From Dysidea avara (Eukaryota; Porifera; Demospongiae; Dictyoceratida; Dysideidae): a stretch of 64,000 nt of DNA. This document shows, in pieces, positions 13,201 to 64,000 of this stretch. The position numbers and the translations under genes were made by a program. Each line of letters opens with the position of its first letter. Within the stretch, counting starts at the first letter, position 1. Below the pieces are notes generated by a model. That model searched no databases, was not told the origin of the DNA, and was given only the letters and a program-made list of their open reading frames with translations. The DNA lies in contig NC_089274.1 in the NCBI RefSeq assembly GCF_963678975.1, positions 31,435,053 to 31,499,052 on the forward strand, in the 5' to 3' direction.

Positions 13201-16200
13201 TCACAGCAGCCTGGCAGTACCAGTTAGGTATTACTAAGTCCAAATATGCCTCCCTAAATGCTTTCAAGGAGTTGTGATGGAATTTAAATAAAAATTTTAT
13301 AATTGAATTTCTACTATGGTAAATTACTGTAACTACATGTACGTAATACAGTGTAACTCAACAATGGGCCTTATCCACCACAGACATAAAAATGGCTGCT
13401 TTAGTGTGGGGACTTTCGTAAAATTTGTATGGATGACTATGGGAATAAAATTTTGAATGTCTGTATCTCAGCCAAGAAGGAAGATATCGAACTCTAATTA
13501 GCAGGTACTGTATGGCTATAAGACATTACAGTAAGTATGTAAAAGCGATTTCAGTTGATTTTAAAAACAATGCTAGATTCCTATTCTGTCAGCTAATTTC
13601 TAACCATACCTGCTGGTTAGAGCTCGATATCTTTCGTCTTGGCTGAGATGTTGCTGTTCAAAAAATTTCTCCCCATAGTTTCCCATACAAATTTTACGAG
13701 AGTCTCCACACTACAGTGGCCATTTTTATGTCTGTGACTTAATTTTGGATAAGGCTCATGAGTAATGCTATCTGCTTGATTTCTTTACTGTTTGACATTG
13801 CTAGACCCTAGATGTGCCTTTTAGCTTACTACAGCAGCCATAATGCATGCATCAATTACTTACAGTTTTGACTTCCTTTGTGTTCCATTCTTTCTCCACT
13901 ACCATGTACAGTAGGTGTTGATTCACAAGTAGTGCATAATGGCTTTCTTGTGCTGACTATCATGATTACAATGGAAATTGTTGGTAATTTTTGTAGTGTC
14001 TGAATTGATTACCAAGGAGCTTCTCATACTATTTGTTTGTGACACCGTGTAACAGTTAGAACATAACTAAAAACAAAGAGTTTGCTTTTTAGTATAGTCA
14101 GGACATGCATTCAAATGTGAAGTCATACAGTACAGTAGTACTGTATATTTGGGATCATGAAGAACTGGGATTTTCCAGCAAGAATTATCGCCATAAAAAC
14201 CAGCCCATAGCTTGGCAGGATTGGTTAGACACAGCCAAGCCCAAAAATGCCTTCAGACCAACCCCAAACCCTTCCAAAAAGTTTATATGGAATTTTTAAA
14301 GTTTTCTGTTTAACAGAATTTTATGCTGACTGACTGACTGACTGATTAACTGATGCCTCCAGCCAAGCATAACTTGATAATGGATAAGACAGGCTTGATC
14401 TTCACTGTTTGACATCGCTTCATCTTGAGATGTGTCTTTTTGCCAACTACATTGCATATGATACATGCATCATGGACTTGTCTTTGTGTTCCAGTGCTTT
14501 TTGCTGATGCTGCAAAGTGTCAGTTTGTGATAGCTTTATGCGGCTTCTCTGTGGCTGCTTGGCTATTATGCTTATTACTTGTGTTTTCCATAGTGACTGG
14601 ATTGATTGCAGGATGCTCCTTGTATTATTGTTCATTTATAATGCTGTGTAATTGGCAGAGCATCATTGAAAACAGAGGATAATGGCCACCTCCTGTAATT
14701 GATTGTGGGGCATGCGTTCTGATGCCAAATTACTTTTATGGCATGCCTAATGCCATTATTTCTTTTAATGTAGTATGCACAGATTCATTTGTCATAATTA
14801 AGTAAACAAACAAGTAGAAGGAAAAATAAGGATTAGGGATCAAAGGGAAAAAAAATAAGAGAGTAGTTAAAAGTGATGAAACAAGGAAGGTTGCCTGTAC
14901 CTGCAGATATGCTAATGGACATTTAATCCCTAATTCAGTCATAGTTTTAGACTAAAGATTTATTGTCCACTAGTATATCTGCAGGTACACTGTATAGGCA
15001 ACTTCCCTTGTTTCACTACTTTTGTCTGATCCCTAAAATTCCTATTCTTTTTCTACTACAGTGGTCTGTACTTGGTAACTTTAACTGGCACAATTCTATC
15101 CTTTTTTATATATGGCTTGTGCAGGTTTCTCAGTCATAAGTCATGCTACAAAGGAGTAGAAAACTACAAGTGAAATTAAGAGTTGTAAGGATCATAGGCA
15201 GTTGCCTTCACCTTCAGCTACTGTATACTAGTGGAAATTTAAGATTGAAGTAGGAATTAAATGTGTACTAGTATAGCTGCAGGTGTAGTCGACCTCCCTT
15301 GTTTCATTTTTTATTGTCCCTACTTAAAGTTACATAAAAATTTCTACACTGTAATTTTCCTTGTACTTGTTCTTATCAGCGATCATATTTCTGTTAAAAC
15401 ACTGCTACCCGTCCTTATTCTAGAATAGTGGCGGATGGCATCAATTCCAACAGAAAAGAAAGCATGAAAGAAATTGGGCATACTATATTTCTACTTTATC
15501 AATCTTTAGTATTTTGTGGAGGCTCTCATCCGACAAAAATTAATTAAATTTACCATCATGATATTAGATAAGTTGAATTAATTTGGTTACTGTCAGTGGC
15601 CACGTTGTGTGCAATAAATTCTCTATTAAATGCAGCCTACTCATCTTACATTCCTTCGCTCAAGTATTTAAAATCAAGAACAACCTTAGGGGGAATACTT
15701 GTCCTCTTCGTGCAATTTCATCACACGTCTAAGGGTACTGTACAGTACTACTGTATTTCTAGAAATACATTTAAAAACTAATTTGAAAATGAAGTAGGGT
15801 TCCAGCAATAAAAAGTAGTGTAACAAAGATATATGAATGATGGTAGCAATTACAACATAGCTATGTGAGAAAATCCAGACTTAGGCACTGAACAGATGGT
15901 GGCATGCCTAAGTATAGTAGAGATTTTCTCATTTACACACACGCACGCACCCCCTGTCGCTACTGTATGTAGTAATATCTACCATCATTCATCAAGACAC
16001 ACGGTAGTGTGTCGTGCGGCCCAAGAAGCCGGCGCGCCACACCGTGAGTATATTGACAGGAAGAACGAAAACGTCATTTTCACACCTTTGTATCTCGGTG
16101 ATCACTTATCTGATTGGAACCAAATTTGCTACACAGTTGCCCGCCAGCCAAGGGAGTCTACATTCCAAATTTGAAGGAAATCGCTCCAGCCATTTCCGAG

Positions 16201-19200
16201 ATACGAGCTGCCAAAGTTTCGTTTTTTTTTCTTCGTTTTTTTTTCTTCTTCGTCTTTTCGCAAACTTGCAAAAATTGCTATAACAAGCAAACGCGTGCTC
16301 CGATCGCCTTGAAATTTGGCACACAGAAAGGGAGTCCAAAGGCGAATCCTAGCATCAAATTTGGTACAAATCCGATGAATGGTTCAGGAGTTATGACCGA
16401 TTATTCGCATAAAACAAGATCGATTTGTTGTCACGCCTACAGGGTAAACCGCTTCATGGAATGAGTTGAAAATTGCTATGTAGATGGAGTAACCATCGTA
16501 GGAGTGCCTTTTGGTGGTTTGAAAGGAATCGAGATAAAGACCATGGAGATATGACACAAAACCCAACCTGTGTCACAATTACGCGATCGATTTTTATGAA
16601 TAAAAAAGTATTAGTTTTCACGCCTACTAGGCAAACCGCTTAGAGCAATGAGCTGAAAATCAGTGTATAGCTGGAATAATCTTCATAGAAAGTCCTTGCA
16701 GTAGTACAGAAGAATCGGATTACAAACCACTGAGTTATGATTCAAAAGCCAACTCCGTGTAGCAAATGCGAGATCGAGATACTCTAATAGAACAGTCACC
16801 CTAATAGAGCATTCGGCTAATTTATTTACTTCTCCATTATAGAATTTTATTACATCACAAGTTATTCTGTAGGGAGTTCAGCTGCAAACAGTTAATCTTA
16901 TAGACAGTTCAGCAAGAAGACAGTCACCATGTGGAGAGTTAAGCAAATATACCACTATAGAGATTCAGAACATTACAAGTCACACTGAAGAAAGTTCAGC
17001 TATAAACAAGTCATGCACTGTGTAGAGAATTCAGCTACAATTAAGTCACTCTCTAGAGAATTCAGTTACACAGAATTCTGCTACACACAAGTCACTGTGG
17101 AAAGAGTTCTGCTACAAACAAATTACCCTTTAGAGTGATCAGCTACAAACAAAACACTTTGCAGGGTGTTCAACTGCAACAAATCAATTACCTTTAGAGC
17201 GATCAGCAATGAACAAATCAACACAAATCTACCTGTAGAGAGATCAGCTAGAAACAAATCACCCTGAAGAGAGTTCAGCTACAAAAAACACCCTGTAGAG
17301 ACATCAGCTAGAAACTAGACACAATGTAAGGAGTTCAGCTACAAGCAATCACCCTGTAGAGAGTTCAGCTAAAACAAATCAACCTGCAGAGAGATCAGCT
17401 ACAAACAAATCACCTTATAGAGAGTTCAGCTACAAACAGATTACCTGTAGAGAGATCGGCTACAAACAAATCAACATGCAGAGAGATCAGCTATATACAC
17501 ACAAATCAACTTGTAGAGAGATCAGCTACAAACAAATCACCCTGTAGAGAGATCAGCTAGAAACTACACACAATGTAAGGAGTTCAGCTACAAACAAAAT
17601 TAATCACCTGTAGAGAGATCAGCTACAAACTAGACACAAAGTAAGGAGTTCAGCTACAAGCAAATTACCCTGTAGAGAGTTCATCTACAAACAAATCAAC
17701 CTGTAGAGCAATCAGCTAGAAACAAATCACCCTGAAGAGAGGTCAGCTACAAAAAATCACCCTGTAGAGAGATCAGCTAGAAACAAATCACCCTGAAGAG
17801 AGGTCAGCTACAAAAAAATCACCCTGTAGAGAGATCAGCTACAAACAAATTGCCCTGTAGAGAGATCGGCTACAAACAAATCAACCTGCAGAGAGATCAG
17901 CTACACACAAATCAACTTGTAGAGAGTTCAGCTACAAACAAATTACCCTGTAGAGAGATCGGCTACAAACAAATCAGCCTGTAGAGAGTTCAGCTAAAAC
18001 AAATCAACCTGCAGAGAGATCAACTACAAACAAATCACCTTATGGAGAGTTCAGCTACAAACAAATTACCCTATAGAGAGATCGGCTACAAACAAATCAA
18101 CCTGCAGAGAGATCAGCTACACACAAATCAACTTGTAGAGAGATAAATTACAAACAAATCACCCTGTAGAGAGATCAGCTAGAAACTACACACAATGTAA
18201 GGAGTTCAGCTACAAATAAATCACCTTATAGAGAGTTCAGCTACAAACAAATCACTCTGTAGAGAGATCAGCTAGAAACTGGACACAATGTAAGGAGTTC
18301 AGCTACAAGCAAATCACCCTTTAGTGAGTTCAGCTACAAACAAATCAACCTGCAGTGAGATCACCTACAAAAAAGCACCTTGTACAGAGTTCAGCTACAA
18401 ACAAATTACCCTATAGAGAGATTGGCTACAAACAAATCAACCAGTAGAAAGATCAGCTACACACAAATCAACTTGTAGAGAGATCAGCTACAAACAAATC
18501 ACCCTGTAGAGAGATCAGCTAGAAACTAGTCACAATGTAAGGAGTTCAGCTACAAGTAAATCACCCTGTAGAGAGTTCAGCTAGAACAAATCAACCTGCA
18601 GAGAGATCAGCTACAAATAAATCACTTTATAGACAGTTCAGCTACAAACAAATTACCTTGTAGAGAGATCGGCTGCAAATTAATCAACCTGCAGAGAGAT
18701 CAGCTACACACAAATCAACTTGTAGAGAGATCAGCTACAAAAAAATCACCCTGTAGAGAGTTCAGCTAGACGAAGTCACCTTATAGAGAGTTCAGCTACA
18801 AAGAAACCATCATGTAGAGAGTTCGGCTATAAAGACACCACCATGTAGAGAGTTTAGCTGCAAACAAATCACCTGTAGAGAGTTCAGCTACAAAGAAACC
18901 ATCCTGTATATAGTTCAGCTACATTTCAAGTCACCCAGTAGAGAGATCAGCTGCAAAAAAAATCCTGTGAGGAATAATGACCATGTAATAAACATATGTA
19001 TATAATTTGTATAATTACTAATAAAATCAAAAATAATTGAAGCACTAAATTTCTTCTTTAAGTTCTTTTCTTCTTCCTGTGGTAAAAAAAAAACACATGG
19101 GTTAAAAAAGCCCCAAAGCCAGCCATAGGCCGGCTTTGCAGTATACAAATACAAAAAGAAGTGATATCTAATCAAAAACAGCCAAGCTGTAAAAAAAGGT

Positions 19201-22200
19201 GCGGCCCCCATAAAGGCCATGGTGAAAAAAGATGTGAAATCCAAGGTGGCGGCCAAGAAATGGCTGTGATGGTAGGTTAATGGTTACATTTTAATAACGG
19301 CAATTCAGGTGAATTTTGTGCCGCTTGGTCTTGGCACCAAATTCACCTGAATTGTTGTTATTAAAATGTAACCATTAACCTACCATCACAGCCATTTCTT
19401 GGCCGCCACCTTGGATTTCACATCTTTTTTCACCATGGCCTTTATGGGGGCCGCACCTTTTTTTACAGCTTGGCTGTTTTTGATTAGATATGTATATCTT
19501 GTTTTACTACTTTTATTGCTGGAACCCTACTTCATTTATAACTTTAGTTTGTGTTACATAGCTATATTATACACGTGTGGCTGTGATTGTTTTATTAGGG
19601 TATCTTGGTCTTCCTGCTTGTCTCAAAATAGCTATGTAATAGAGTAAGGGGCATAGTTTTCCATGTCTAGTTTTGTACTGCAAAACCGCAGCTGATTGCA
19701 GCTAGATCATTAAGAGGCACGGTCATGGAGTACACCGATGATTAAGTGCAAAGCTCATGTTCTGACTATTTAGGAGTGTAATTGGATCAGCAACTTTGTT
19801 ATATAAGTGCATCTACTCCTCCTACAGTGGCTTAAGTGCTTCAAGTGGTTTTGTGGCATCTAAATATGCTGCTCTAAAGAAAGTGTCAATGTAGAACTTG
19901 GTATTGTTTCCTCATTGCATGAAGAAGATGATCATGTATTTGAAGACTCAGAAAATAAGGCAGTCACTCGTCAGAACCAGAAAAGCACATGTTTGTTATT
20001 GTGGTGAGAAATGGTGGCAGTGTGCTGCTTTGTTTGGCCTCTAGCCTTGCGATCGTGGTCAGGCAGTGAGACAGGAAGACCAAAATACAGGTATTGAGAA
20101 TCTTTTTTTAAAATTCAAAATCTGGCAGAATTTGAAGTTAGGCTATTCCTTTGTCATGTGTCATGTTTCCATGATGGTTTTTACTGACAGCATTTTGGGT
20201 GGTGCCCGTCACTTTTAGGGGATAACCTAGGTATGCAGGAATTATGCCTGAATAATTTTTGGGATAATGATAGGGTTAAAAAATTGAGCATTACTCCAGC
20301 ATTTTTGATGCATTTTTAGAACATAATTGGCATAAATATATAGTAGAGCAGTCTCTTACTCTAATGAAACAATCGGCACAGAATAGTTCATAGCAAAAAG
20401 AGGTTTTCTAACAAATTGATACAGCTAGATTTTACAGTTTTTACTGTTTCTAACTTTGCTATACAATATAATTACAAAAGTGAATAAAAACTTGGGAATA
20501 ACTTTGGGAATTATGAATACATTTTGGGAATAATATGAAAATTTAAGCACATAAGCCTAGGAGAACACAAAGACATGTTACATTAATATTTGAAATAATA
20601 GCAAGGAGATAGTCACTTAGACAAATAGTTTTTACTAGGTGCAAATCATGGCTATACAACTAAGACTTTGTTAAGAGCAAAGTGTTTAATAAACTATCGG
20701 GATAGTATTCACTATCGCGATATTAAATGAGTAACTATCGTGATAGTAAAATTTTTACTATCGCTCAGCACTAGTTTTTACACTATGTATGTGAACTTAA
20801 GACTGTATAGCATAATGATGTATTTAGTGTGAGTTGCATCTGGGGTGACAATCAAATTATTCCAGGTTTATGCTGGAACCAATATCAACGGTGTGTAAAA
20901 ATTTGATGTCTAAGAAGCAAGCTAATGAAGAAAAGATAAAAAATCATGAGGCAAGTACTAACTACGTACATACAATATATGTACAGTACATGCACTAGAT
21001 TGTATACCTGTCCAGAGTTGAAGTCTCAAATATCTATTAGAAAATGGTATCCATAAAATCTAAGAGACCTCTGGAGAGGTTCTCTAAAATGATATACTTC
21101 TAATATGTGTGGCATAGAGATCTACTGTATACTTTGTGGATGCGAGGTTTTTAAAATCTACGAAAATCCAAGGCGTGGTCTCAAATTGACTTAGAAAATA
21201 TATGCATTTTATACAGGCATATATGTCGTACTCCCACAATGTTAAAATGATCACGGAAGACCGAATGTGCTTTTGTCAAAGTGTTGAAAAAATTGTAGCT
21301 CGCACCGCTTTCTTTCACAAGTTAGACTTGGATTTGGCACAGCTGGGAAACAGCAGTAATTGATAATGGAAACCCAGGTTAGCAGTATCCAGTGCCTGTG
21401 ACGTCACAGTGGTATAAAAAAACATGTGTGTCGAAGAAGCAGCTTGTGTGGATATTTATACAATGGAAACGAGTTGTTACAAGTTTCAGTGGCACCACAG
21501 TAGTGCGAAGAACAGGCACGGTTTCGAATATGGCACATTACATGTAGTGAAAAATAATGTTTCTACAAGGAAGCTTACCCATTTAGGTCTTAGTAGAGTC
21601 CATCCATATCGTAACAAACATACGTACAACATTAGATTGTACCTCCCATAGTCGAATTCTTTTAGGCATGCCTATGGTGACTGGTCACCCACTGCAGGCT
21701 ATCAGCCTGAATATGCTTGGAGGGAGCATTGCAAATCAATGATCAAAAGTGAGATTTGTGATACTTGAGGTTTTTTCTGCTAGCAGGTTTCTAACCATTT
21801 TAAGAACCTGCTAGCAGGTCTCTTAGTGGATTTTAAAGACCTCATTTTCCTCCAAAGATCAAAGGATATTATGCATACCATTTTTTTCTAATCATTATAT
21901 TGAAATACAAGTGATCACTATAGCTGCCTAAATTTCCCCTATTCAATATATTTGCCAACAATTTAATATCAACATTTGTGTAGTTTGTTAGATTCCAATT
22001 GACTGTTTGCAAAGCGTTTTGATAACAAAATGGTTTGATTTTTGTCAGTACAAATTAACAGAAACCACAAAAAGGATCACAAAAAAAAGTGATACCAAAA
22101 ACCTTCATTGATGAAAAAAGAGAATATGGCTAGCCAGGACTTGAACCCCATGTGACCACATAAATTTCTAACCCACATGTGTTACATTGGAGTTTACTGT

Positions 22201-23411: not shown

Positions 23412-24672
23412 TCAAGATACATGGTAGTGTGTCATGCGGCCAAGAAGCCGGTGTGCAACACCGTGAGTATATTGGCAGGAAGAAAGAAAACATGATTTTC
23501 ACGTATTTGTAGCTTTGTGTTGCCTTTATGAAACAAGACGATTTTTGTTGTGGACACATCAGTACTCCACATACGAAATTTCAGCAAAATCGCTTCAAGC
23601 ATTCCCGAGATATGAGACTTCAAAAATTGGCTTAATTTCTTTTATTTTTATTTTTTTATTATTATTACAGGTTTTTGCAATTGAATTCAGCAACTTTGCA
23701 ATTCAATTTGTCCCGTTTGCAATTGAATTTGTTGGTTTTGCAACTGAATTCGTCCCGTTTGCAATTGAATTCGTCGCTTTTGCAATAAAATCAGTTAAAT
23801 CCGTAACAAGAATGGCAGCTGGAAAAAAACACGAAAACATGGTCTAGCAGCCGCTACAAGAACTTGTTCAAGTATAACAGATAGTAAACAACTCTTTATA
23901 AGGTAATAATTCTTCCTCTACAGCCTATCCAGCAACATTCCAAACTCTACTACACCATTCGCAATGGGTGTGGTCATTCGAGAGCAAGTTAATTAACTTG
24001 TCAGGCAGCTATCAGCTTCTCGTACTACCAGCTCCAGGTACCTTCTAGTGTCTCAAGTGTAACTCTCCATGGCGTAAATAATTCATCTCTTCATGAACGG
24101 TTGGTTTCTTGGAGCCGTTTTGTTTATGACGAATTGTAATGCAAGCTTGACGAAATTCTTTTGCAAAACCGACAAATTCAACTGCAAAACCGACTAATTC
24201 AACTGCAAAACCGACGAATTCAATTACAAACAGGACGAATTCTATTGCAAAACCGACAAATTCAATTGCAAACAGGACGAATTCAATCGCAAAGGTGACG
24301 AATTCAATAGCAAAAACCTGTATTATCTAAAAAAAAAACAGCCAAGCTGTAAAAAAAGGGTGCGGCCTCCAAAAAGGCCAGGATGAAAAAGATGTGAAAT
24401 CCCAGGTGGTGGCCAAGAAATGGCTGTGATGGTAGGTTAATGGCAAAAAATTTAATAATGACAATTCAGGCGAATTTGGTGCTGAATCTTAGTGAAACTT
24501 GGAGGAGACAACACAAATTCGCCTAAATTGTCATTATTAAAATTTTTGCCTTTGACCTACCATCGCAGTCATTTCTTGGCCGCCACCTTGAATTTCACAT
24601 CTTTTTTTCATCCTGGCCTTTTTAAAAAGGAGGCCGCACCTTTTTTTTACAGCTTGGCTGTTTTGGATTAGA
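23412..24672 (+). mobile_element. Composite element, copy 2 (different minisatellite)
   Basis: It begins TCAAGATACATGGTAGTGTG inside a truncated R1 copy (23292-23411) and ends with long inverted repeat B (24326-24672). The body is shortened to about 230 bp. In place of the 31-bp array there is a 21-24 bp repeat containing GCAATTGAATTCGTCCCGTT at about 23670-23790, with an inverted block at 24165-24320. The two blocks would fold back on each other. Confidence 0.7.
24326..24672. repeat. Long inverted repeat B
   Basis: Same family as 19167-19488. The arms share ACAGCCAAGCTGTAAAAAAA and TTCTTGGCCGCCACCTTG. The centre carries ATTCAGGCGAATTTG and its complement. Confidence 0.8.
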
Positions 24673-24679
24673 GATCGCT

Positions 24680-25100
24680 TCTGTTTGTAATTTCATACCT
24701 AAAGCCCTAACTTTGGGTATTTCTTTTAACTTTCTTTTTCTTTTCTATAGGATTGATGATTATTAAAAAAACTATATTGTTTAATTATTTAGCTACACAT
24801 GCACATTTAACAATAATTTTGTGTTGATTAATTATTAACTCAATCCGAATACTCTACAGGGAAATGTGTATGTAGCTAAAAGTTTTACAGGGAGAATCAT
24901 AATATAACTGTACTCTTAGTCTACATGGTGAACAATTTGTACGTAGTTGAACTTGCTACAGAGTGACTTGTAACATAACTAAACTGTACAGAAAGAATTG
25001 CAAGATAACTGAACTTTATACAGGGTAATTTTATTGTAGGTGATCTCTCTGCAGGGTGACATGTTTCTAGCTGAACTCTCTACAGGGTAACGTGGTTCTA
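24680..25100 (-). repeat. Tail plus short reversed 31-bp array
   Basis: After foldback B comes the tail found next to other foldbacks, with TTTTCTTTTCTATAGGA. A worn array of roughly six to eight units in reverse orientation follows (ATCTCTCTGCAGGGTGACAT). It is cut by the start of composite 3, so it is probably a truncated reverse composite. Confidence 0.6.
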
Positions 25101-27304
25101 TCTAATCAAGATACACAGTAGTGTGTCGTGCAACCCAAGAAGCCGGCGCATCACACTGTGAGTATATTGACAGGAAGAAAGAAAATGCGATTTTCATACC
25201 TTTGTAGCTCCGTGTTCCTTCATCCGATTGGAACCAATTTTGCTGCAGAGGTGCCCGCCAGGTAGGCCACCCCACATACCAAGTTTGAAGAAAATCGCCT
25301 TAGCCATTTCCGAGATATGAGTGGCCAAAATTTCATTTTTATTTCTTCGTTTTTTTCTTCTTATTCTTTGTCTTTTTGCACACTTTGAAAAATTGTTATA
25401 AAATACAAACGCGTAATCAGATCACCTTGAAATTTGGAACACATAAAGGCAGTCCAAAGGCGAATTGTAGAATCAAATTTGGTGCAAACTCGATGAATAA
25501 TTCAGGAGTTATGACCGATTATTCGCGTAAAACAAGACCGATTTGTTGTCACGCCTACAGGGTAAACCGCTTCATGGAATAAGTTGAAAATCGGTTTGTG
25601 GATAGATCAACCATTGTAGGAGTGCCTTTTGGTTGTTTGAAAACAATCGAAATTAAGATCATGGAGATATGACACAAAACCTAAGGTGTGTAACAGTTGC
25701 ACGATCGAGATTCGTGAATAACATTATCAATAATTTTCACGCCTACCAGGCAAACCGCTTAGAGCAATGAGCTGAAAATTGGAATGTGGCTGGAATAACA
25801 ATCGTAGAAAGTCCTTGCAGTAGTAAAGAAGAATCGGGTTACAAACCATTGAGTTAAGATTCGAAAGCCAACTATGTGTAGCAAATGCAAAATCGAGATA
25901 TTCTAATAGAACAGTCACCTTAATAGTGCACTCAGTTACATTTATGACTTACTCCATTATAGAACTTTCTATTACATTGCAAGTTATTCTGTAGGGAGTT
26001 CAGCTGCAAACAGTTAATTTTATAGACAGTTCAGCTACATTCCAAGTCACCCTGTAGAGAGCTCAGCTACAAATGTATAGCTGTAGAGATTCAGATCAGA
26101 ACATTACAAGTCACACTGAAGAGAGTTCAGCTATAAACAAGTCATGCACCCTGTAGAGAGTTCAGCTACAAACAAGTCACTCTCTACAGAATTCAGCTAC
26201 AAACAAGTCACCATGTAGAGAATTCAGCAACCAAAAACCACCCTGTAAAGAATTCAGCTATACAAACAAGGTACTCTATAGAGGGATCAAGAGAGAGTTC
26301 ACAGCTAGAAGACGTCACCTTGTAGAGAGTTCAGCTGTAAACAAATCATCCTGCAGGGAGTTCAGCTACAAACAAATCACACCATAGAGAGTTCAGCTAG
26401 AAACAAATCACCCTGTAGAGAGATCAGCTAGAAGGAGTTACCTTGTAGGGAGTTCAGCGATACAAGAAACCACCCTGTAGAGAGTTCAGCTGCACCGTGT
26501 AGAGATTTCGACTACAACCAAATCACTTTGTAGAGAGTTCAGCTACAATCAAATCACCCTGTAGAGATTTCAGCTACAACCAAATCACTCTGTAGAGAGA
26601 AACAAGTTACAGAGATCAGCTAACAGAAGTCACCTTGTAGAGAGTTCAGCTACAAATAATAAATCACCTTGTAGAGAGTTCGGCTACAATGAAACCATCC
26701 TGTACAGATTTCAGCTAGAAACAAGTCACCCTGTAGAGAGCTTATCTACAAACAGATCACCATGTAGAGAGTTCAAGTAGAAACAAGTCATGCTGTTGAG
26801 AGATCAACTAGAAGAAGTCACTTTGTAGAGAGTTCAGCTACAAAAAACTACCCTGTGGAGAGTTAGCTACAGTATGAACAGATCACCCTGGAGAGGAAAT
26901 GAGCTACAAACAAGTCTCCCTGTAGAGAGATCAGCTAGAAGAAGTCACTTTGTAGAGAGTTCAGACACAAAGAAACTACCCTGTAAAGAGTTCAGCTACT
27001 AACAAATCACACCCTGCAGATGGTTCAGCTACAAACAGATCAGTTCAGCTACAAACAAATCACCCTGTAGAGAGTTCAGCTACAAAAATCACCCTGTAGA
27101 GAGTTTGGCTACAAACAAATCATTGAGCAGGGATTTTGACTGCAAACAAATCACCTTGTAGAGAGTTCTGCGACAAACCCTAAGAGAGTTCAGCTACAAC
27201 CAAATCACCCTGTAGAGAGATCAGCTAGAAACAAGTTACAGAAATCAGCTAGAAGAAGTCACCTTGTAAAGAGTTCAGCTACAAATAAACCACCCTGTAG
27301 AGAG

Positions 27305-27705
27305 TAGGGCTGAGCGATACTGCTATTTTAGTATCACGATCAATACTAAGGCCACTATACATGATACTGAATAGTTTACGATACTTACACATAAGTAAAT
27401 CTACATAGTGTATAGCTCAGCATTCCTGCAGGAAGTCTTTATAGGTAGTACCAAACTAGCCATTATCATCACTAACAGTTATTGTAACACATGCTTTGAG
27501 GTTATGTTATGGTGTTCACACCTCTCTACAGGGATAACCAGGTGGGTAGGCTTTATCAGTTACAAGGATTCTTATCCAAGTACTGCATAACAAATGGATT
27601 TTTAATGTATAGGAATGGTATCATGATAGTTAATAACAAAATATTGTGATATCAATACTCTCAAATATCGCGATATATCGTTAAAACGATAATTGCTCAG
27701 CCCTA
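27305..27705. mobile_element. hAT-like non-autonomous element 2, inside the satellite
   Basis: Termini TAGGGCTGAGCGAT and ATTGCTCAGCCCTA are flanked by 8-bp duplications GTAGAGAG (27297-27304 and 27706-27713). The target is the core of a 31-bp unit. At 401 bp it has AATATCGCGATATATCG-type subterminal palindromes and no transposase. Confidence 0.9.
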
Positions 27706-29104
27706 GTAGAGAGTTCAGCTACAAAGGAACCATCCTGTACAGAGTTCAGCTAGAAACAAGTCACCCTATAGAGGGATCAGCTAGAAACAAGTCAGCCTGT
27801 TGAGAGATTAGCTAAAAGAAGTCACCTTGTAGAGAGTTCGGTTACAAACAAATCATCCTGTAGAGAGCTCATTTACAAAAAAAAAATTACCCTGCAGAGA
27901 GTTCAGCTGCAAACAAGTTAGTAACCCTATAGAGAGATCAGCTAGAAACAAATCATCTTGTAGAGAGTTCAGCTACAAACATCACCCTGTAGAGAGTTCA
28001 ATTACAATTAGATAGCTGTATAGAGAGTTCGGCTAGAAACAAGTCACCCTGTAGAGAGATCAGCCAGAAACAAGTCATCCAGAGATCAGCCAGAAATAAG
28101 TCATCCTGTAGAGATATCAGCTAGAAGAAGTTACCTTGTAGAGAGTTCAACTACAAAGAAACGATCATGTAGAGGGTTCAGCTGCAAACAAATCACCCTG
28201 TAGAAAGTTCAGCTACGAACAGATCAAGAGGGATCACCCTGTAGAGTGTTCAACTAGAAACAAATCACCCTGTAGAGAGTTCAGCTACGAACAGATCACC
28301 CTGTAGAGAGTTCAGCTACAAACAATTCACCCTGTAGAGAGACCAGCTAGAAGAAGTCACCTTGTGGAGAGTTCAGCTACAAAGAAGCCATCATGTAGAG
28401 AGTTCAGCTGCAAACAAATCACCCTGTAAAAAAAATCAGCTACAAACAAATCACCCTGTAGTAAGATCAGCTAGAAGAAGTCACCTTGTGGAGGGTTCAG
28501 CTACAAAAAAAGCTACCCAGTAGAGAGTTCATCTAGATCAGCTACAAACAAGTTATATACTTTATGCAAAGTCCAGCTACAAGTAAGTCACTCTATAGAG
28601 AGTTCAGCTACAAACAAGTCACTCTGTAGTACAAACAAGTCACCGTGTAGCTGGAGAGTTCAGTAACCAATCAAAAAACCACTCTGTAAAGCGTTCAGCT
28701 ATACAAACATGTTATAACTCTATAGAGAAAGTTATAACTCTATAGAGAGATCAGCTAGAAATAATTAGTGATCCAGTAGAGAGATCAGCTACAAGACATC
28801 ATCTTATAGAGAGTTTTGTTACAAAGAAACCACCATGTAGAGAGTTCAGCTGCAAACATATCACCCTGTGGAGAGTGCAGCTATGAACAAGTCACCCTAT
28901 AGAGAGATCAGTTAGAAGACGTTACCTTGTAGAGAGTTCAGCTATAAAGAAACCATCATATAAAGAGTTCAGCTGCAAACAAATCACTCTGTAGAAAGTT
29001 CAGCTACGAACAGATCACCCTTTAGAGAGTTCAGCTGCAAACAAATCATCTGTAGAGAGTTCAACCAGAAACAAGTTCACCCTGTAGAGAGATCAGCTAA
29101 AAAC

Positions 29105-29817
29105 AAGTCACCCCGTAGAGAGAGCTGCTACAAAGAAACCATCCTGTAGAGAGTTCAATTACAAACAAATAACTCTATAGAGAGTTCAGCTAGAAACAAG
29201 TCACCATGTAGAGAAATCAGCTAGAAACAAGTCATCCAGAGATCAGCTAGAAACAAGTCACCCTGTAGAGAGATCAGCTAGAAACAAGTCATCCTGTAGA
29301 GAGATCAGCTAGAAACAAGTCACCCCATAGAGAGAACAGCTACAAAGAAAGCATCCTGTAGAGAGTTCAGTTACAAACAGAAAATCCTATAGGGAGTTCA
29401 GCTAGAAACAAGTCACCGTGTAGAGAGATCAGCTAGAAATAAGTCATCCAGAGATCACTGGATGACTTGTTTCTAGCTGATCTCTCTACACGGTGACTTG
29501 TTTCTACTGAACTCTCCATAGGGATTTCTGTTTGCAATTGAACTCTCTACAGGATGGTTTCTTTGTAGCTGATCTCTCTACAGGGTGACTTGTTTCTAGC
29601 TGATCTCTCTACAGGATGACTTGTTTCTAGCTGATCTCTGGATGACTTGTTTCTAGCTGATTTCTCTACACGGTGACTTATTTCTAGCTGAACTCCCTAT
29701 AGGGTTTTCTGTTTGTAATTGAACTCTCTACAGGATGGTTTCTTTGTAGCTGCTCTCTCTATGGGGTGACTTGTTTCTAGCTGACCTCTCTACAGGATGA
29801 CTTGTTTCTAGTTGATC
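29105..29817. repeat. Large palindrome within the satellite array
   Basis: Units flip orientation at a sharp centre, TCATCCAG-AGATCA-CTGGATGA (29444-29465). They run reversed up to about 29817, where the normal orientation resumes at GTTGATCAGGTCACC. The reversed block mirrors the order of unit variants before it, so it is an inverted duplication of roughly 350 bp. Confidence 0.8.
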
Positions 29818-30511
29818 AGGTCACCCTGTAGAGAGATCAGCTAGAAAGAAACCATCCTGTAGAGATTTCAATTGCAAACAGATAACCCTATGGAGAGTTC
29901 AACTAGAAACAAGTCACCATGTAGAGAGATCAGCTAGAAACAAGTCATCCAGAGATCAGCTAGAAACAAATCACCCTGTAGAGAGATCAGCTACAAAGAA
30001 ACCATCCTGTAGAGAGTTCAGCTACAATCAAGTTACACTATAGAGAGATCAGCTAGAAACAAATCATCTTGTAGAGAGTCCAGTTGCAAACAAATCACCC
30101 TGTAGAGAATTCAGCCATCTTGTAGAGAGTTCAGCTTGAATAAGTCACCTTGTAGAGAGTTCAGCTACAAAGAAATCACCATGTAGAGAGTTCAGCTGCA
30201 AACAAATCACCCTGTAGAGAGTTCAGCTAGAAACAAATCATCCTGTAGAGAGTTCAGCTAGAAACAAATCACCCTGAAAAGAGTTCAGCTACAAACAATG
30301 AGAGTTTCAGGTACAGTTCAGTTATGTAAGAAGTCACCTTATTAACTACAGTATGTGATAATCATCATTCAATGTTAAATATACAAATATTTCATCAGAC
30401 AAAAGCTATACACACAATTACCTCCTTTCTTCCACAATTCCTTACAAGTTAAAAAGAAGCATCAAAGCCATATGGCCAGCTTTGTGGCTTGCAATACAAA
30501 AAGAAGTGATA

Positions 30512-30828
30512 TCTAAACCAAAACAGCCAAGCTGGAAAAAAAGGGTGCGGCCCCCAAGGTGAAAAAAGATGTGAAATCCAAGGTGGCGGCTAATAAATGG
30601 CTGTGATGGTAGGTTAATGGCAAAAATTTAAACTACGACAATTCAGGTGAATTTGGTGCCGAATCCTAGTGGAGGAGGCAACACAAATTCACCTGAATTG
30701 TCGTTATTAAAATTTTTGCCATTAACCTACCATCACAGCCATTTCTTGGCCGCCACCTTGAATTTCACATCTTTTTTTACCTTGGGGGCCACACCCTTTT
30801 TTTTACAGCTTGGCTGTTTTGGTTTAGA
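30512..30828. repeat. Long inverted repeat C
   Basis: Same family as 19167-19488, closing composite 3. The arms share GGTGCGGCCCCCAAGGTGAA and ACAATTCAGGTGAATTTG. Confidence 0.85.
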
Positions 30829-32999: not shown

Positions 33000-33252
<253 letters not shown>

Positions 33253-34992: not shown

Positions 34993-37900
34993 CTCGAGCC
35001 CCTCCCCCTGTCTCCACCGCCTATGATTCTGCTTGTAAGTATACAACTATTTCTGTAATTTATTTTCCTTATACAGTGTACTATACAGTGGTTGGGGTGC
35101 AGAAGAAAATTTGAGCCACATTCCTGTCAAAACCATGATCAGCATAAACATGTAGAATTCCCAGGGTTTGATTCCTGCCCATGACAACATTTTCTTAGTT
35201 ATTTTCTTCTCAGTGCCACTTTTTCATGGCTTACTTTTTATGTGTCAGCTATTGGCGATGCTTACCAATCTGTAAATGTATTAACATGATTCATGCACAA
35301 AATAAAGTGTTCATCATTTGGCTACCTCACAGAGTTTATTGCAAAAACTTTACATGCTTTTCTTGAAGGCCATGATGTGGAGAAATCTTTAACAGCATTC
35401 TGTTGCAAACTACAGGACAAAAAGTTCAGCTGGCTATTGCAGTTACTGCAGTATAGGCTTTTGGGTTTGAATGGCACAGCTTTTTTCATTTTTATACTTA
35501 ACTTTTTTTGCTTAGAACTTCATATGGACTGCATATAATAGCATATTTAGGGCAGGCATGGGTAGGCCGATTGAGTGCACGTTTGTCTGTTCCATGTGTT
35601 CTACTAGAGTGAGCACCTTCTAAGCACCTTCTATTTAGCCAGGAAGTGTGCACCTGTGTGTTAATTCTCAAACCTTTATTGCAGTATAGCTACAGTGAAT
35701 AGCACTACTCTGAACACTTTTTGTACAAATTCATTTCTCTTTATTGACCATGTCACAGTGCCTACATGACAGGGCAGGTAATTACTAGCACCACCTAGTT
35801 TGCACTAGTGCTGTGAACTTGCAGAGTTTATTAAAACCGGTTATTGGAAGGTGAATAATTGGATATTGACTGGTTATTGTCTGATTGTAGATTAGCAGAC
35901 ATAATGGTACTCAACATGCCTGTTGGAAAGATTAAGGGTGGTACCAAAGTGACCATCAACATCCTGCCTTACAATAACAGTTATTGCAATCACATATTTT
36001 TACATGCTTCGAGGTTATGTCATGATGTTAACATTTGTCAGCAGGGGTAATTTGTTGTTTACCAAGTGGGTGGGCAAAACCTGTTTAATAACCGGTTTTT
36101 CCATACCAGTACACAACACTAGTTTGCACGTGTCTTGATAATAATTGTTGGTTAGTGGTTCTGCTGTTTAGTTAGCCTATTGGGCTGCATAATGGAATAA
36201 GGTGAAATATACAATCGATATGCATGTTACACTTTAGCATACTATTTGAGTATTGCTCAACAGCATAATGGCTGTTATCAAAGCATAATACTTATGAAGG
36301 ACACTGTTTCTTCTTTGTCTTAGTATTTTTTTATACAACTGAACCAAAACAAATTCAGGCACAAAGAGCACAAGCTAATAAAGTGTGTTTCCTGCTAGTA
36401 AACTTATTATATCAAAAAGTGGCAGCCAAGAAATAACTGCAGTGATATTATTATCTAATCCAAAACAGCCAAGCTGTAAAAAAAGATTGCGGCCCTCAAA
36501 ACGGCTATGGTGAAAAAAGATGTGAAATCCAAGGTGGCAGCTAAGAAATGGCTGTGATGGTAGGTTAATGGTGAAAATTTTAATAACGACAATTCAGGTG
36601 AATCTTGTGCCGCTTGGTCTTGGTACAAAATTCACCTGAATTGTTAATAAAATTTTTACCATTAACATACCATCACAGCCATTTCTTGGCTGCCACCTTG
36701 GATTTCACATCTTTTTTCACCATAGCCTTTTTGAGGGCCACACACTTTTTTTACAGCTTGGCTATTTTGGATTAGATTTTACTTCTTTTGTATTTGTATA
36801 CCCCAAAGCCAGCATATGGCGGCCTTGGGGCTTTTTTCACCTATCTTTTTTCTTTACCACAGGAAGAAAAAAAAGATGAAGCAGATTCTAAATACTTTAA
36901 CTATTTCTGATTTTATCAGTAAATGTACAAATCAAACCGTACGGTCGTACTGTTTAATAAGTAGGTGTGGTATATTTAGTAACTATTATGATGTAATTGT
37001 AATGCGCATTAATTAGATGTAGAATATTCTAGAACTAGGCTAGCACGTGTTGTATTCTATTTGTTTTAATGTAACTTGCTGTGCTGTTGCGTGATTGACA
37101 CTGATCATTATTATTGTGATTATTATCGAAACCCGCTAAACAGTACACTGGTGACGAGGATGGCGGCATCACAACTGGCAGTATGAACGCTTTCGACCCC
37201 GACACGGATGATTGGACCGCGTATGTGGAAAGACTAGAATCATTTTTCGTCGCTAATGAAATTAAAGACGAGAAGAAAGTGTCGGTTCTAGTAACCTTTC
37301 TGGGAGCGAAGGCTTACGAACTGTTATGATCAATCATCGCGCCAGCAAAACCAGCTACTAAGAATTACGCCGACCTGATTAAAGCAATGCAGACTCACCT
37401 GGGTCCAAAACCATTGACGATTGCCCAGTGAAGATGACCCTCGACACTGGAGCTGCAGTTTCAGTTATCTCATCTGAGATGTGCCAGGAACTGTTACCAC
37501 AATTGACACTTAAACAGTCCAACTTGTTATTGAAAACCTATACTGGTGAGCCTCTGAAGTTAGAAGGGGAGGCGACTGTTAATGTCAGCTACCAAGGACA
37601 GCGGTTCACATTACCATTAGTAGTTGTAACAGGCAATGGACCACCCTTATTTGGTCGTAATTGGCTCCAACATGTTAAACTCAATTGGAAAGAAATCAAG
37701 TATGTTTCCACAACTGTTGATGGACTACTCCACAAGTATCGTGCTCTATTCAAGGATGAGTTAGGTACAATGACAGGAGTACAAGCACGACTTTCTGTCA
37801 AGCCTGATTCAACACCCAAGTTTTGTAGGGCAAGGGCCACTCCTTATGCTCTTCATGAAGCCATTGGAAAAGATTTGACACGTCTTCAACAAATGGGTGT

Positions 37901-40900
37901 AATCGAGAGTGTGAAATACAGTGATTGGGCTACACCTGTAGTACCAGTGCCCAAGCCAGATGGCACAGTTCGACTTTGTAGCGATTTTAAAGTAACAGTG
38001 AACCCTGTTTTACAGATTGACAAATATCCAATTCCTAAGCCAGAAGACTTATTGACGGTGCTTGCAGGTGGCCAGAAATTTTCCAAACTTGATTTGTCCC
38101 AGGCTTACCAGCAAATGTTGCTGCACCCTGATGACCGAAAGTATACAACAATTAACACTCATCTGGGCCTGTTTCAGTATACACGTCTGCCATTTGGCAT
38201 TGCGTCAGCACCTGCAATCTTTCAACATCAGATGGAAAAGATCCTACAATGCATTCCTAACATTGCTTGCTATTTGGACGATGTGTTGATTACTGGCAAG
38301 GATGACAGTGAACATGTGGCGACGCTAGAGAAAGTGTTTGAGCGCTTGTACCAATGGGGATTACATTTGAAGAAAAGTAAATGTGAGTTTTTGAAAGAAA
38401 CTGTACAGTACCTAGGATATGTAGTGGATGCACAAGGGTTGCACACTGCCCTTGATAAGATTCGAGCAATCACAGATGCTCCCAGTCCTAAAAATCAGCA
38501 GCAGTTGAGAGCTTTCTTAGGCCTTGTGAACTATTATGGAACGTTTTTACCATCATTGTCCACTACAACTCACCCTCTCAACCAACTACTTTGACACAAC
38601 ATACAATGGAGTTGGTCTGATGCTTGTGAATCTTCATTTCAGAAACTCAAATCTCAACTTTCAGCCCAACCAGTCCTAGCTCACTATGACTCATCGTTCG
38701 TTACCCCTGAAGTTAGCCTGTGACGCATCACCCTACAGGGTTGGTGCAGTTATATCTCATTTAATGCCCTCAGGTGAAGAAAAACCCATAGCTTTTGGCT
38801 CAAGAACATTGTCGAAAGCTGAGCAAAACTACGCTCAAGTCGAAAAAGAGGCCTTGGCGATAATTTTCGGTATCAAGAAGTTTCATCAATACATTTATGG
38901 TCATAAATTTCTGTTACTAACTGATCACAAGCCTCTCACCACAATCCTGAGTCCAAAAGCTGGTCTACCTGCACCTGCGGCAGCACGTCTACAGAGATGG
39001 GTTATCATTCTATCAGCCTACAACTATGACATTGTGTTTCGTCCAACCAAGAGCCATGCAAATGCTGACTGTTTGTCAAGACTTCCCCTAGGTGATTCTG
39101 TATTACCAACCAATGAAGACTCTGCAAGTCTCTTTAATGTTCAGCAGATTGGAACCTTACCAGTGACACCACAACAGTTACATTCTGAAACAGCAAAAGA
39201 TCCTCTGCTATCTAAAGTATTACTGTACACCAAGAATGGTTGGCCACACACATTTAGTGAGGATTTACGTCCCTTCTACTGACGCAGGTTAGAAATTACT
39301 ATAGAATGTGCTTGCTTAATGTGGGATATGAAGGTAATTGTTCCTAATAAGCTGCAGGGAAGAGTATTGGAGGAACTCCATACAGGACACATGGGGATTG
39401 TCAAAATGAAATCTCTGGCAAGGACACATGTCTGGTGGCCAATTATAGACAAACAGATTGAAGAGATAGTACAGAAGTGTGTGAACCTTGCCAAAGTCTG
39501 AGAAACAAGCCACCACCAGCTACATTACATCCATGGACTTGGCCCACATGACCATGGCAACACTTACATGTGGACTTTGCCGGGCCATTTATGGATAGAT
39601 CCTACTTGATTATTGTTGATGCCCATTCCAAGTGGCTGAGGTAATTCCCATGGTAACGACCACAGCCGAGAGGACAATTGTGGAGCTGAGGAAGATATTT
39701 TCCACCCAAGGGTTACCTGAACAATTAGTTACAGACAACGGGGCACAGTTCACTTCTGCGTTATTTGAACAATTCCTACGAGAGAATGGAGTTAAACACA
39801 TCAGGTCAGCCCCTTACCATCCTTCCACCAATGGTGAGGCAGAAAGGTTTGTGCAAACATTCAAAAATGCAATGAAAGCTGCTAAGAATGACTCGGGTTC
39901 CTTTGACACCAAATTGACCAGATTTCTGATTGTGTATCGTAGTACTCCAAATACTACAACAGGAGAATCACCTGCCGAATTACTTTTTCGTCATCAGCTT
40001 CGTACCAGACTTAGTTTGTTGACACCGAACGTCTCAACGACCGTTGACAGGAAACAAACTGACCAGAAAAGCCATCATGACAAGAAAGTAAGGATAGACA
40101 GTTTGAATTGAACCAGCCTGTACTTGTCCAGAACCATAATGGAGACCCCAAGTGGGTTCCTGGAACTATACTGTCCAGGCTAGGCTCAAGGAATTATGAA
40201 GTACTAGTTGATGGCAAGGTCTGGAAAAGACATATTAATCAGTTGTTAAAGAAATGTGAATTGACGAAAGTTGACGAAAAGCAACCTGATAATGACGATT
40301 TGATGGACTTTGAACTGCAGTTCCCAATTGACGAACCTGACACATCAACTAATGAACCTGACACATCTGCCAGCCAGAGTTGGTACCCTACCAGAACTCG
40401 TCAACCTCCTGATAGACTAACTTACAATTAAGGAGGGAGAAACTGTGGTATATTTAGTAACTATTATGATGTAATTGTAATGCACATTAATTAGATGTAG
40501 AACTAGGCTAGCACGTGTTGTATTCTTTTTGCTTTAATGTAACTTGCTGTACTGTTGCGTGATTGACACTGATCATTATTATTGTGATTATTATCGAAAC
40601 CTGCTAAACACTACAGTAGGGATTGTGGTGAATGTTTCATGCACCGCCCAAAATTCTGCCTTTAAAAATCATCCTACAGTCATTTTACGTGGCGAAAATC
40701 ACCTTTACGGAATAGTACTAGTCCACATAATATATAAAACAGCACAAAACACAACAGCACAAAACACAGGTGGTCGGATATAAAGTTTTAAAAAATTGCC
40801 AAAAACTACAATTTTAGTCTCACTGCCTCACTCACTGCCTGACCACAGTCGCAAGCCTAGAGCCCAAGCGAAGCAGCACATTGTCACCATTTTACACCAC

Positions 40901-43900
40901 AACAACAAACTCACCGGTGGGATGTGCCTTTTGGGGTTCCGACGAGTGTACGCCTGTGCACCTTTCCTTTCCTTTTGTCTTCAATCAGGTTGGTTGTCTT
41001 CTTCTTCAAGCATCGAAACCATACCGAGGCATTAATTTTCCATATCAACACTTGTGTAGACCCCACAAAATTATTTCAGAAAGCGCTTATGCTGCTGAAA
41101 GAGTGGGGCACTTATAATTTCAAGTGTTGCACGTGAAACATTAAGGCTACTGAGTTGTCACTTTGACATTTGCTAACACCTGGACTGCAATTGATGAAGA
41201 GATTTGAGACGGACTGATACTCGACGGCTTGTTCCTCTGATCACACTGACCCAGCCACTCAGTACCGGACGGCGAGATCAGCGAGTCAGTGATTCATGTG
41301 ATTGGATAGTACTCGAGTTCATGCTGTTAGTTGAGACTAAGCGCCACACAACTGAAAGGGCCTGTTCGTTAGAACAACTTCCGGCCGGGGTGAATAGAAC
41401 GCGGACCATCGTACTGAGACAGGTCATAGATCTGAGCGCCACTGCTACTATGATCAAAGGTAAGCTATGCATGCTACTACGGGCCTATGTGCTTCCAATT
41501 TTGGCACAGTACATACTTCAATAAGCTGCAACTAGCTAGCTGTGCTACAAGAAAAAACTAAACAAACTAGAATTTAAAAATTGTTAATTTAAAAATGAAA
41601 TAGGAATTTATGCAACAAAACGTAGTGAAACAAGAGATGAATAATGGTATTACAGCATAGTTCGATGGAAAAGTCCCTACTTTGGCATTGAGCAAAATTA
41701 TAGCTAATGTGCCAAAGTATGGATTTTCCCATCAAGCTATGCTGTATTACCATCATTCATCTCTTGTTTCACTACTTGTTATTGCATAGATCCCTACTTC
41801 ATTTTAAATTAACAAGTTTTAAAATACTATATATAATGCATTATATTTATTACATGTCAATTATTCCGTACGGATAACTTGCTTGCAGCTGATCTCTTTA
41901 CTGGGTGACTTGAAATGTAGCTGAACTCTCTACAAGGTGATTTGCTTCTAGCTGATCTCTCTACAGGATGACTTGTTTCTAGCTGAACTCTCTATGGGAT
42001 GATTTGTTTTGTAGCTGAACTCTCTACAAGGTGATTTGTTTCTAGCTGATCTCTCCATTTTCTAGCCAATCTCTCTACAGTGTAACTTATTTACACACTA
42101 GCTGAACTCTCTACAGGGTGGTTTCTTTGTAGCGGAACTCTCCACAGGGTGATTTGTTTCTATCTAATCTCTCTACAGGGTTACTTTGTCTGGCTTATTG
42201 AACTCTCTACAGGGTGATCTGTTCGTAGCAGGGTGATTTGTTTGCAGCTGAACTCTCTACATGACGGTTTCATTGTAGCTGAACTCTCTACAAAGGTGAC
42301 TTCTTCTAGCTAATCTCTCAACAGAGTGATTTGTTTGTAGCTAAACTCTCTACAGGATGACTTGTTTCTAGCTGAACTCTCTACAGGGTGTGATCTGTTC
42401 GTAGCTGAACTCTCTGCAGGGTGATTTGTTTGCAGCTGAACTCTCTACATGATGGTTTCTTTGTAGTTGAACTCTCTACAAGGTGACTTCTTCTAGCTGA
42501 TTTCTCTACAGGGTGACTTGTTTCTAAGTTAAATCTCTACAGGGTGACTTGCCTGTAGCTGAATTGTCTATCAGATTAACTGTTTGTAGCTGAATCCCCT
42601 ACAGAATAACTTGTAATATAATATAATTCTATAATGGAGTAAGTTATAAACGTAGTTGAATGCTCTATTAGAGTGACTATTCTATTAGAGTATCTAGATC
42701 TCGCATTTGCTACACGTAGTTGCCTTTCGAATCATAACTCAGTGGTTTGTATTCCGATTCTTCTGTACTACTGCAAGCACTTTCTATGATGATTATTCCA
42801 GCTACATATTGATTTTTAGCTCATTGCTCTAAGCGGTTTGCCTAGTAGGTGTGAAAACTAATAGTTTTGATTCATAAAAATCGATCGCATAATTGGGACA
42901 CAGGTTGGGTTTTGTGTCATATCTCCATGGTCTTTATCTTGATTCCTACAAAAAGGCACTCCTACAATGGTTACTCCATCTACATAGCAATTTTCAACTC
43001 ATTCCTCAAAGGGGTTTACCCTGTAGGCATGACAGACCTTTGACCTTATTTTACTCAAATAATCGGTGATAACTCCATGAATGTTCTTCAGATTTCTACC
43101 AAAGTTGGTACTGAGATCCGCCTTAATGAGCCCTTTAAGTGTGCCAAATGTCAGCCCGATTGGAACACGCATTGGTGTTTTATAGTGGATTTTGCAAAGT
43201 GTGCGAAATGAAGAAAAAAAACAAAGAAATTAAAACAAAATATTGTTTGCCCGTATCTCGGAAATGGCTGGAGCGATTTTCTTCAAATTTGGTATGTAGA
43301 CTCCCCTAACTGGCTGACACTTCTCTAGCAAATTTGGTTTCAATTGGATTAGGGATCACAGAGCTACATAAGTGTGAAAATTGCATTTTCTTTCTTCCTG
43401 TTAATATACTCATGGTGTGGCACACTGGCTTCTTGGGCTGCATGACACACTACCGTGTCTTGATTACAATAGTATCACTGTAGTATTTCTTGGCCACCAC
43501 CCTTTGATATCCCTTATACTAGCCCGAGCCTAAATTCAGATTTTTACCTTAGTTTACTGAGGGTTGCTAGTTTATGTAGGTGGGAGGCATGACAACCAAT
43601 CATACTACGTAGATGATTTTTTTTGAGAAAAGTGCACTTTGCTTGCTGCTTCTTTATGCAAACCAAATGAAGATTGGACTGTAAATGCACTGATGAAGCT
43701 AAAAACTGTGAGAAAATGATGGTAGTTCTATTGATATATAAACCGTTACTTTTAGCATCTCTTTGGGAGCACTGAGATTTGGGGTAAGTAGAATTCGAGG
43801 AAAACGGGAACAGAAAGTTGGAACGGGAATGACCCACAGAAAATGCCTGATAAAAGGTCATCATATAATACATAGGCTGGATTTTACACCACAATGTTTG

Positions 43901-63420: not shown

Positions 63421-64000
63421 TTAAATTCTCTACAATACATAGATGAATGCTTTAAGAGAGTATAATTATTTACTTCTTAACTGACTGCTCTATTAGGGTG
63501 ACTGCTCTATTACAGTATCTCGATCGGCACTTGTTACACCTAGTTGACTTTTGTAAGTAGTTTTTAATCTGATTCCTTGTAAACTAGCTACTGAAGGATC
63601 ATTCTAAAATAATTATTCTACCTCTCTACCTATTTTCAACTGATTCCAGTAGCTATTTGCCTGGTAGGCATGGTAAGTAATACTAAAAACTTGATCATGT
63701 GATTTTTACACATGGTTGGCGTTTTCGTTATAACTTCATAACTGTTAGTGCAATTTTTTTCAAACCACAAAAGGTTTGCACTATGATAGTTACTCCACGT
63801 ATAAACCAATATTCAAGTTATTCTGCCTAGCAGTTTACCCTGGAGGTGTGACAACAAATCACCTTAGGGTTTTGAAAAACCGCACATAACTCTCTTGTTC
63901 TTTGTCTGATCTCTACCAAAATTGGACTGTAACTGTATTATGCTCTTGCTGCCCTCCAAATTTTAAGTAAATCGACCAAAGCACGCATGAGTTATTACGA

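What the first reader, a model, noticed from the sequence alone, without database searches (positions are those of the whole stretch)
15992..19488. A satellite array, a terminal hairpin and a 320-bp foldback moved as one mobile unit
The two flanks of this 3.5-kb block are the halves of one small palindromic element (15795-15991 and 19489-19530), whose intact relatives at 41585-41812 and 53870-53930 read straight through the junction. The block therefore entered as a unit that includes the 31-bp array of about 65 copies. Copies 3 and 6 repeat the same order. I do not know a described family with this exact layout.
Basis: partly seen in the sequence, partly recalled or inferred. Interest (0 to 1): 0.85.

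Follow-up and report, generated by a model that had tools for sequence, protein, structure and literature searches.

The report
Satellite-carrying Helitron-like element with giant palindrome
A stretch of repeated DNA, a short hairpin and a large fold-back travel together as one "rolling-circle" jumping element that recently spread widely in this genome, carrying its satellite repeats with it.

Summary
Window 15992-19488 is one complete mobile element of 3,497 bp. The same layout (hairpin end, ~700-bp body, 31-bp array, tail, 322-bp palindrome) and ends recur in 6 of 6 complete young copies read; their arrays are colinear at 98.0-99.2% identity, so the array moved with the element. Insertion is into A|T without target duplication: the exact 3' 16-mer is followed by T 7,150 times of 7,264 in the 550.8-Mb genome, and a paralogous empty site matches the joined flanks without a gap. 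One end joins the other directly, head to tail, at 104 places, five of them within 24 kb; palindrome-to-palindrome joins number 0. This points to a rolling-circle, Helitron-like element that encodes no protein. Helitron Rep genes abound in the genome, but no partner with these ends was found. It departs from canonical Helitrons in its 3' end (hairpin directly followed by TTGA, not a hairpin about 11 nt before CTRR) and in the terminal palindrome. Nearest described kind: satellite-carrying Helitron/Helentron elements. Which end is 5' is inferred. The 3'-to-3' junction control did not complete.

The parts
15992..19488 (-). complete element copy A (strand given in the preferred Helitron polarity: 5' end at 19488, 3' end at 15992)
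   Evidence: same ends in 6 of 6 complete copies read, flanks A|T
15992..16217 (-). HEAD: inferred 3' terminal region, ends ...GTGTGTCTTGA|T
   Evidence: 7,150 exact 3' ends with T genome-wide
15996..16013 (.). terminal hairpin, 7-bp stem, 4-nt loop, 4 nt from the terminus
16260..16800 (-). MID body with an internal repeat (16423-16590 against 16610-16777, 70%)
16975..18961 (.). 31-bp satellite array, about 64 units, carried as cargo
   Evidence: colinear arrays in six copies
18962..19166 (-). TAIL between array and palindrome
19167..19488 (.). 322-bp terminal palindrome (fold-back), inferred 5' terminal region, A|TCTAATC...
15770..15991 (.). target element (small palindromic repeat), left part
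19489..19560 (.). target element, right part
25106..30828 (-). older copy B, same order, array partly inverted inside
36454..43463 (+). older copy C, both ends A|T, read as interrupted by a gypsy element (ORFs 37383-40111) and a palindromic repeat (41580-41815)
61033..64000 (+). older copy D, cut by the window end
48534..50132 (+). diverged copy E: palindrome, body and head found, no 31-bp array detected
24326..25105 (+). copy G, 5' part, interrupted by copy B

Best explanation
It is a non-autonomous Helitron-like (rolling-circle) transposable element. A Rep/helicase supplied in trans from one of the genome's autonomous Helitrons is inferred to nick at A|TCTAATC, peel off one strand through the palindrome, tail and satellite array, and stop at the small hairpin followed by TTGA. 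The strand or its circle is then inserted at another AT dinucleotide without a target duplication. The array and the palindrome are copied with every move. When termination is skipped, or when an existing 5' end is used as target, head-to-tail joins form. Shown: unit mobility, exact ends, A|T target without duplication, an excess of head-to-tail junctions, recent high copy number. Inferred: Rep/helicase in trans, polarity (about 0.7 for the palindrome being the 5' end), hairpin as terminator, and which autonomous family drives it. The confidence below is for 'Helitron-like rolling-circle element' in either polarity.
For: Target: base outside the 3' end is T in 7,150 of 7,264 exact 3' 16-mers; base outside the palindrome is A in 29 of 30. 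Empty site joined without gap in L079; joined flanks also restore a palindrome arm in L062 and keep a TTA microsatellite in phase in L065 (by eye). Six complete copies share layout and colinear arrays at 98.0-99.2%. 104 exact head-to-tail junctions, backwards-read control 0, five of them in 24 kb of C3 (100 of the 104 places listed); palindrome-to-palindrome joins 0; about 0.5-1.3 expected if insertion into AT sites were random. Two of 30 young heads abut the palindrome end of an older copy in the same orientation. Helitron_like_N: 150 scored matches of 230 candidates in the same genome, many in frames over 1,000 aa; families X, Y and Z show a hairpin + CTAG|T 3' end. Helraiser in cells joins TC to A and CTAG to T and forms circles with exact end-to-end junctions (PMC4778049, passages).
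Against: The 3' end is CTTGA (or CTTG with a one-base shift), not CTRR; its hairpin is 4 nt from the terminus instead of about 11. No autonomous copy with these ends was found; X, Y and Z have other 3' ends, and the pieces read from three weaker Rep classes showed no HEAD match. Both outer ends read TC inwards, so polarity is ambiguous: a hairpin right after a 5' TC also occurs in Fusarium Helitrons. The zero for palindrome-to-palindrome joins uses a longer pattern (34 against 28 bases), and such joins are hard to assemble. The 3'-to-3' control did not complete. Part of the 104 junctions are insertions next to older copies, not concatemers.
Confidence: 0.86

Rival explanations
1. Composite: a Helitron end, a satellite array and a fold-back MITE that inserted separately at the same place.
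For: The palindrome of copy A is flanked by TA on both sides, which would suit a TA-target MITE.
Against: Palindrome next to the same TAIL in 30 of 30 loci; same ends and order in 6 of 6 complete copies; outer base T in 29 of 30 while the next bases vary; colinear arrays.
Confidence: 0.03
2. Reverse polarity of the same kind of element: HEAD is the 5' end (TC plus immediate hairpin, as in Fusarium FoHeli1/2) and the 322-bp palindrome is a giant 3' terminator. This overlaps with the best explanation and differs only in direction.
For: Both ends start with TC inwards; FoHeli1/2 start TCAG with a hairpin at the 5' end (PMC5148889, passages).
Against: GATTAGA is not a Helitron 3' end that I know (recalled); the small hairpin near TTGA|T resembles the usual 3' arrangement; family X in this genome seems to start A|TCTATATA (two copies, in a simple repeat), like A|TCTAATC.
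Confidence: 0.27
3. A Helentron/HINE element (endonuclease-bearing Helitron relatives with central tandem repeats).
For: Central tandem repeats, hairpins at both ends, 9-bp subterminal inverted repeat GTGCGGCCC/GGGCCGCAC (10 of 2,000 shuffles reach 9).
Against: Target is A|T, not TT; the subterminal repeat is not kept by paired changes in older copies (by eye).
Confidence: 0.08
4. Cut-and-paste fold-back or MITE-type DNA transposon.
For: Large inverted repeat.
Against: Both arms lie at one end, no target duplication, excess of end-to-end junctions in one direction.
Confidence: 0.03

Closest known systems
Canonical Helitrons (Helitron1; Helraiser, Helibat)
   Same: TC start, insertion between A and T without duplication, hairpin near the 3' end, head-to-tail junctions (passages)
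   Different: 3' end TTGA instead of CTRR, hairpin 4 nt from the end, 322-bp palindrome at the other end, 31-bp satellite cargo, no coding sequence seen
Helentron non-autonomous elements (HINE, DINE-1, Cg_HINE in oyster)
   Same: non-coding, central tandem array dispersed by the element, hairpin at 3' end (passages)
   Different: they insert in TT and have 11-15-bp subterminal repeats; here A|T and a palindrome with 156-bp arms
Helitron2-type elements of Fusarium (FoHeli)
   Same: FoHeli1/2 have hairpins at both termini, one directly after TC (passages)
   Different: target TNAT|A (the passages also print TNAT|T), 12-bp inverted repeats; no giant palindrome or satellite in the passages seen
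Fold-back elements / MITEs
   Same: long inverted repeat able to fold back (recalled)
   Different: here both arms lie at one end and there is no target duplication

Membership tests
Canonical Helitron (Helitron1) | 5' TC | tested here: met
   A|TCTAATC in young copies; polarity inferred, but the other end also reads A|TC
Canonical Helitron (Helitron1) | insertion between A and T, no target duplication | tested here: met
Canonical Helitron (Helitron1) | 3' CTRR | tested here: not met
   CTTGA, or CTTG with a one-base shift
Canonical Helitron (Helitron1) | 16-20-nt palindrome about 11 bp before the 3' end | tested here: not met
   18-nt hairpin present but only 4 nt from the end
Helitron superfamily | Rep/helicase partner with matching ends | tested here: inconclusive
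   150 scored Rep matches; X, Y, Z have other 3' ends (X and Z read in one copy each, Y in two); weaker Rep classes read in one or two pieces each
Helitron superfamily | precise end-to-end (head-to-tail) junctions | tested here: met
   104 exact, control 0; palindrome-to-palindrome 0; 3'-to-3' not answered
Helentron / HINE | TT target | tested here: not met
Helentron / HINE | subterminal inverted repeats | tested here: inconclusive
   9 bp shared, 10 of 2,000 shuffles, not conserved by paired changes (by eye)
Helentron / HINE | central tandem repeats | tested here: met
   absent or different in window copies E and F
Fold-back transposon / MITE | inverted repeats at both ends and target duplication | tested here: not met

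The most novel reading that the evidence does not exclude
A Helitron lineage in which one terminus is a giant palindrome that works as a structural end. Subfamily marks occur in both of its arms, as expected if an arm is now and then re-copied from its partner while single-stranded. The machinery also uses existing 5' ends of relatives as insertion sites and builds satellite-rich head-to-tail tandems.
Probability: 0.3. Interest if true: 0.7.

Novelty: new variant of a known kind. Interest (0 to 1): 0.5.

Why it matters
It shows in one genome, with thousands of exact end sequences, how a satellite array is spread as cargo and how end-to-end joins arise. That makes the link between Helitrons and dispersed satellite DNA directly countable. 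The terminal palindrome gives a natural test of whether long single-stranded hairpins form during Helitron movement.

Tried and rejected
Independent fold-back MITE with TA target: rejected, palindrome and TAIL are linked in 30 of 30 loci. Family Y as autonomous partner, because array and body follow its gene: rejected, since Y's two copies stop matching at a CTAG|T before that stretch and the neighbour is a 73-75% diverged copy present at one of the two places. Other Rep classes: pieces L086, L087, L092, L093 show no HEAD match. IMG/VR scan for the 3' hairpin: 0 matches; records of the window's own genome may be left out there. Equalising of palindrome arms at every move: not favoured, since the arm differences of copy A are also present in the 40 scored copies, but those were the best matches to copy A, so copies with equalised arms could have been missed; L063-L065, taken by their heads, keep 97.4-98.1% between arms. 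The Rep-to-3'-end comparison by pattern GACACACTANCGTGTGTCYTGAT was asked repeatedly and never answered. The 3'-to-3' junction control did not complete. The 5'-end total was asked once and not answered.
Full report
WHAT WAS CHECKED. The block 15992-19488 contains, in this order, a short terminal hairpin, a ~700-bp body, about 64 units of a 31-bp repeat, a 205-bp tail and a 322-bp palindrome whose arms are 98% complementary. Outside it lie two parts of a small palindromic repeat with relatives elsewhere in the window.

IT IS ONE UNIT. The window is G000:C3:31435053-31499052 of an unnamed 550.8-Mb, 108-contig genome. Gypsy and Mutator genes and Helitron genes make it eukaryotic; an animal such as a sponge is my impression, not tested. 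A search with the head scored 40 places of 1,484 first-look candidates, all 98-100% identical over 409 bases. A search with the palindrome scored 40 of 1,297, all 100% identical over 322 bases. Both sets are the best-scoring ones, so they show recent spread and not the average age. Five further complete copies were read, chosen from the best-scoring heads (two of them because head and palindrome both were in the lists). With copy A all six have the same order and ends, lengths 3,497-4,529 bp, and flanks A and T. Their arrays align colinearly at 98.0-99.2% identity, with 64 to 1,034 gap columns per pair: the array is copied with the element and changes by gained or lost units. In 30 head loci the array follows in 28; in 30 palindrome loci it precedes the tail in 26. 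The six exceptions show other sequence at that point, which I read as later insertions, two of them a reversed copy of the same family at the same tail site. What lies beyond these inserts was mostly not read. Among older window copies, E has no detected 31-bp array and F has 21-bp repeats, so the array is not a fixed part of every subfamily.

ENDS AND TARGET. In 30 head loci the base outside the first recognised head is A in 30 of 30; in L017 that head is an older neighbour, because the 16-base marker did not match the young one, and in L011 it is the outer of two. Outside the palindrome the base, read in the preferred polarity, is A in 29 of 30 and G in one. Genome-wide the 3' terminal 16-mer is followed by T 7,150 times and by another base 114 times, with backwards-read controls of 0 and 1. 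If most were full length this would be roughly 5% of the genome (my estimate). The joined flanks of copy A find paralogs (46 matching rows elsewhere); of five fetched, L079 matches across the junction without a gap, so nothing was duplicated or lost, while the other four vary by small gaps or base changes just beside it. By eye, joined flanks also restore a palindrome arm in L062 and keep a TTA microsatellite in phase in L065. Because an A stands at both places, the boundary is uncertain by one base: TC...CTTGA in A|T, or ATC...CTTG before AT.

HEAD-TO-TAIL JUNCTIONS. The 3' end joined directly to the 5' end occurs 104 times exactly, control 0. Random insertion into AT sites would give about 0.5 (7,150 ends) to 1.3 (20,000 ends, an assumed number). 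Five of them, all on one strand, lie within C3:35130553-35154626, as in a tandem of several elements; the DNA between them was not read. The palindrome-to-palindrome join occurs 0 times (longer pattern, and hard to assemble). The 3'-to-3' control did not complete. At least part of the 104 are not concatemers: in L006 and L020 a young copy abuts an older one (palindrome identity about 80% and 92-94% to copy A) in the same orientation; L020's junction is in the list. Existing 5' ends therefore seem to serve as insertion sites. Helraiser work reports exact end-to-end circle junctions and mentions tandem Helitron arrays in plants and bats (PMC4778049 and PMC5876387, passages only).

PARTNER. PF14214 (Helitron_like_N) gives 150 scored matches among 230 candidates, many with open frames over 1,000 aa. 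Families X, Y and Z show a hairpin and CTAG|T at the 3' side (X and Z read in one copy each by motif, Y in two copies), unlike this element. Parts of three weaker Rep classes gave no HEAD match. The driver is unknown.

PALINDROME. In 15 palindromes compared (pairs with an arm identical to copy A's were left out, copy A added back), arm identity within a copy is 92.4-98.1% in 14 and 80.5% in one. It lies above the copy's mean to arms of other copies in 14 of 15, but above its best match elsewhere in only 2 of 15 (L055 and window copy D), partly because several copies belong to one subfamily. Subfamily marks such as a 9-bp deletion in copy B occur in both arms, which suggests occasional copying between arms. 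The arm differences of the young type are present in all 40 scored copies, though these were selected as best matches. In L046 the palindrome is inverted between its exact ends. As one strand it could fold almost completely (-193.8 kcal/mol with DNA parameters).

PLACE AMONG KNOWN THINGS. The element works like a Helitron and is best placed, on present evidence, in the Helitron superfamily as a non-autonomous member. It fails two defining points of canonical Helitron1 (CTRR, hairpin spacing) and the TT target of Helentrons. Satellite dispersal by non-autonomous Helentrons is described in oyster (PMC7492417, passages) and tandem repeats are part of DINE-1/HINE elements (PMC4067079, passages). 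A 322-bp terminal palindrome was not met in the search listings; subscription papers and Repbase were not searched.

Noticed in passing
window 6363-8034: Two overlapping open frames match the Pfam Mutator-like transposase (PF20700): the first below the curated cut-off, the second at 1.1e-73.
   Followed up: partly
window 37383-40111: Gypsy-type retrotransposon frames (protease, RT, RNase H, integrase) lying inside copy C.
   Followed up: partly
window 36300-36453 and 43464-43640: Copy C sits in the middle of a palindrome that resembles the element's own fold-back arms (by eye); copy A and L062 also sit in palindromic repeats, a possible target preference.
   Followed up: partly
window 23412-24326: Copy F has the same head but 21-bp tandem repeats instead of the 31-bp array.
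   Followed up: no
L011: The last 58 bases of the 3' end are duplicated in tandem at the terminus.
   Followed up: partly
L046: The palindrome is inverted between its exact ends.
   Followed up: partly
L048, 1-1330: A different element with a large palindrome ending CCCCACTAG|TG lies inserted in the tail (by eye).
   Followed up: no
L066-L077: Three autonomous-looking Helitron families: X (8 of 12 loci, main alignments mostly 96-99.7%), Y (L066, L068, 98.6%) and Z (L067, L077, 98.8%).
   Followed up: partly
window 41580-41815 and genome: The small palindromic target repeat is itself common (1,042 first-look candidates).
   Followed up: partly
window 33004-33253: A 250-bp GT microsatellite.
   Followed up: no
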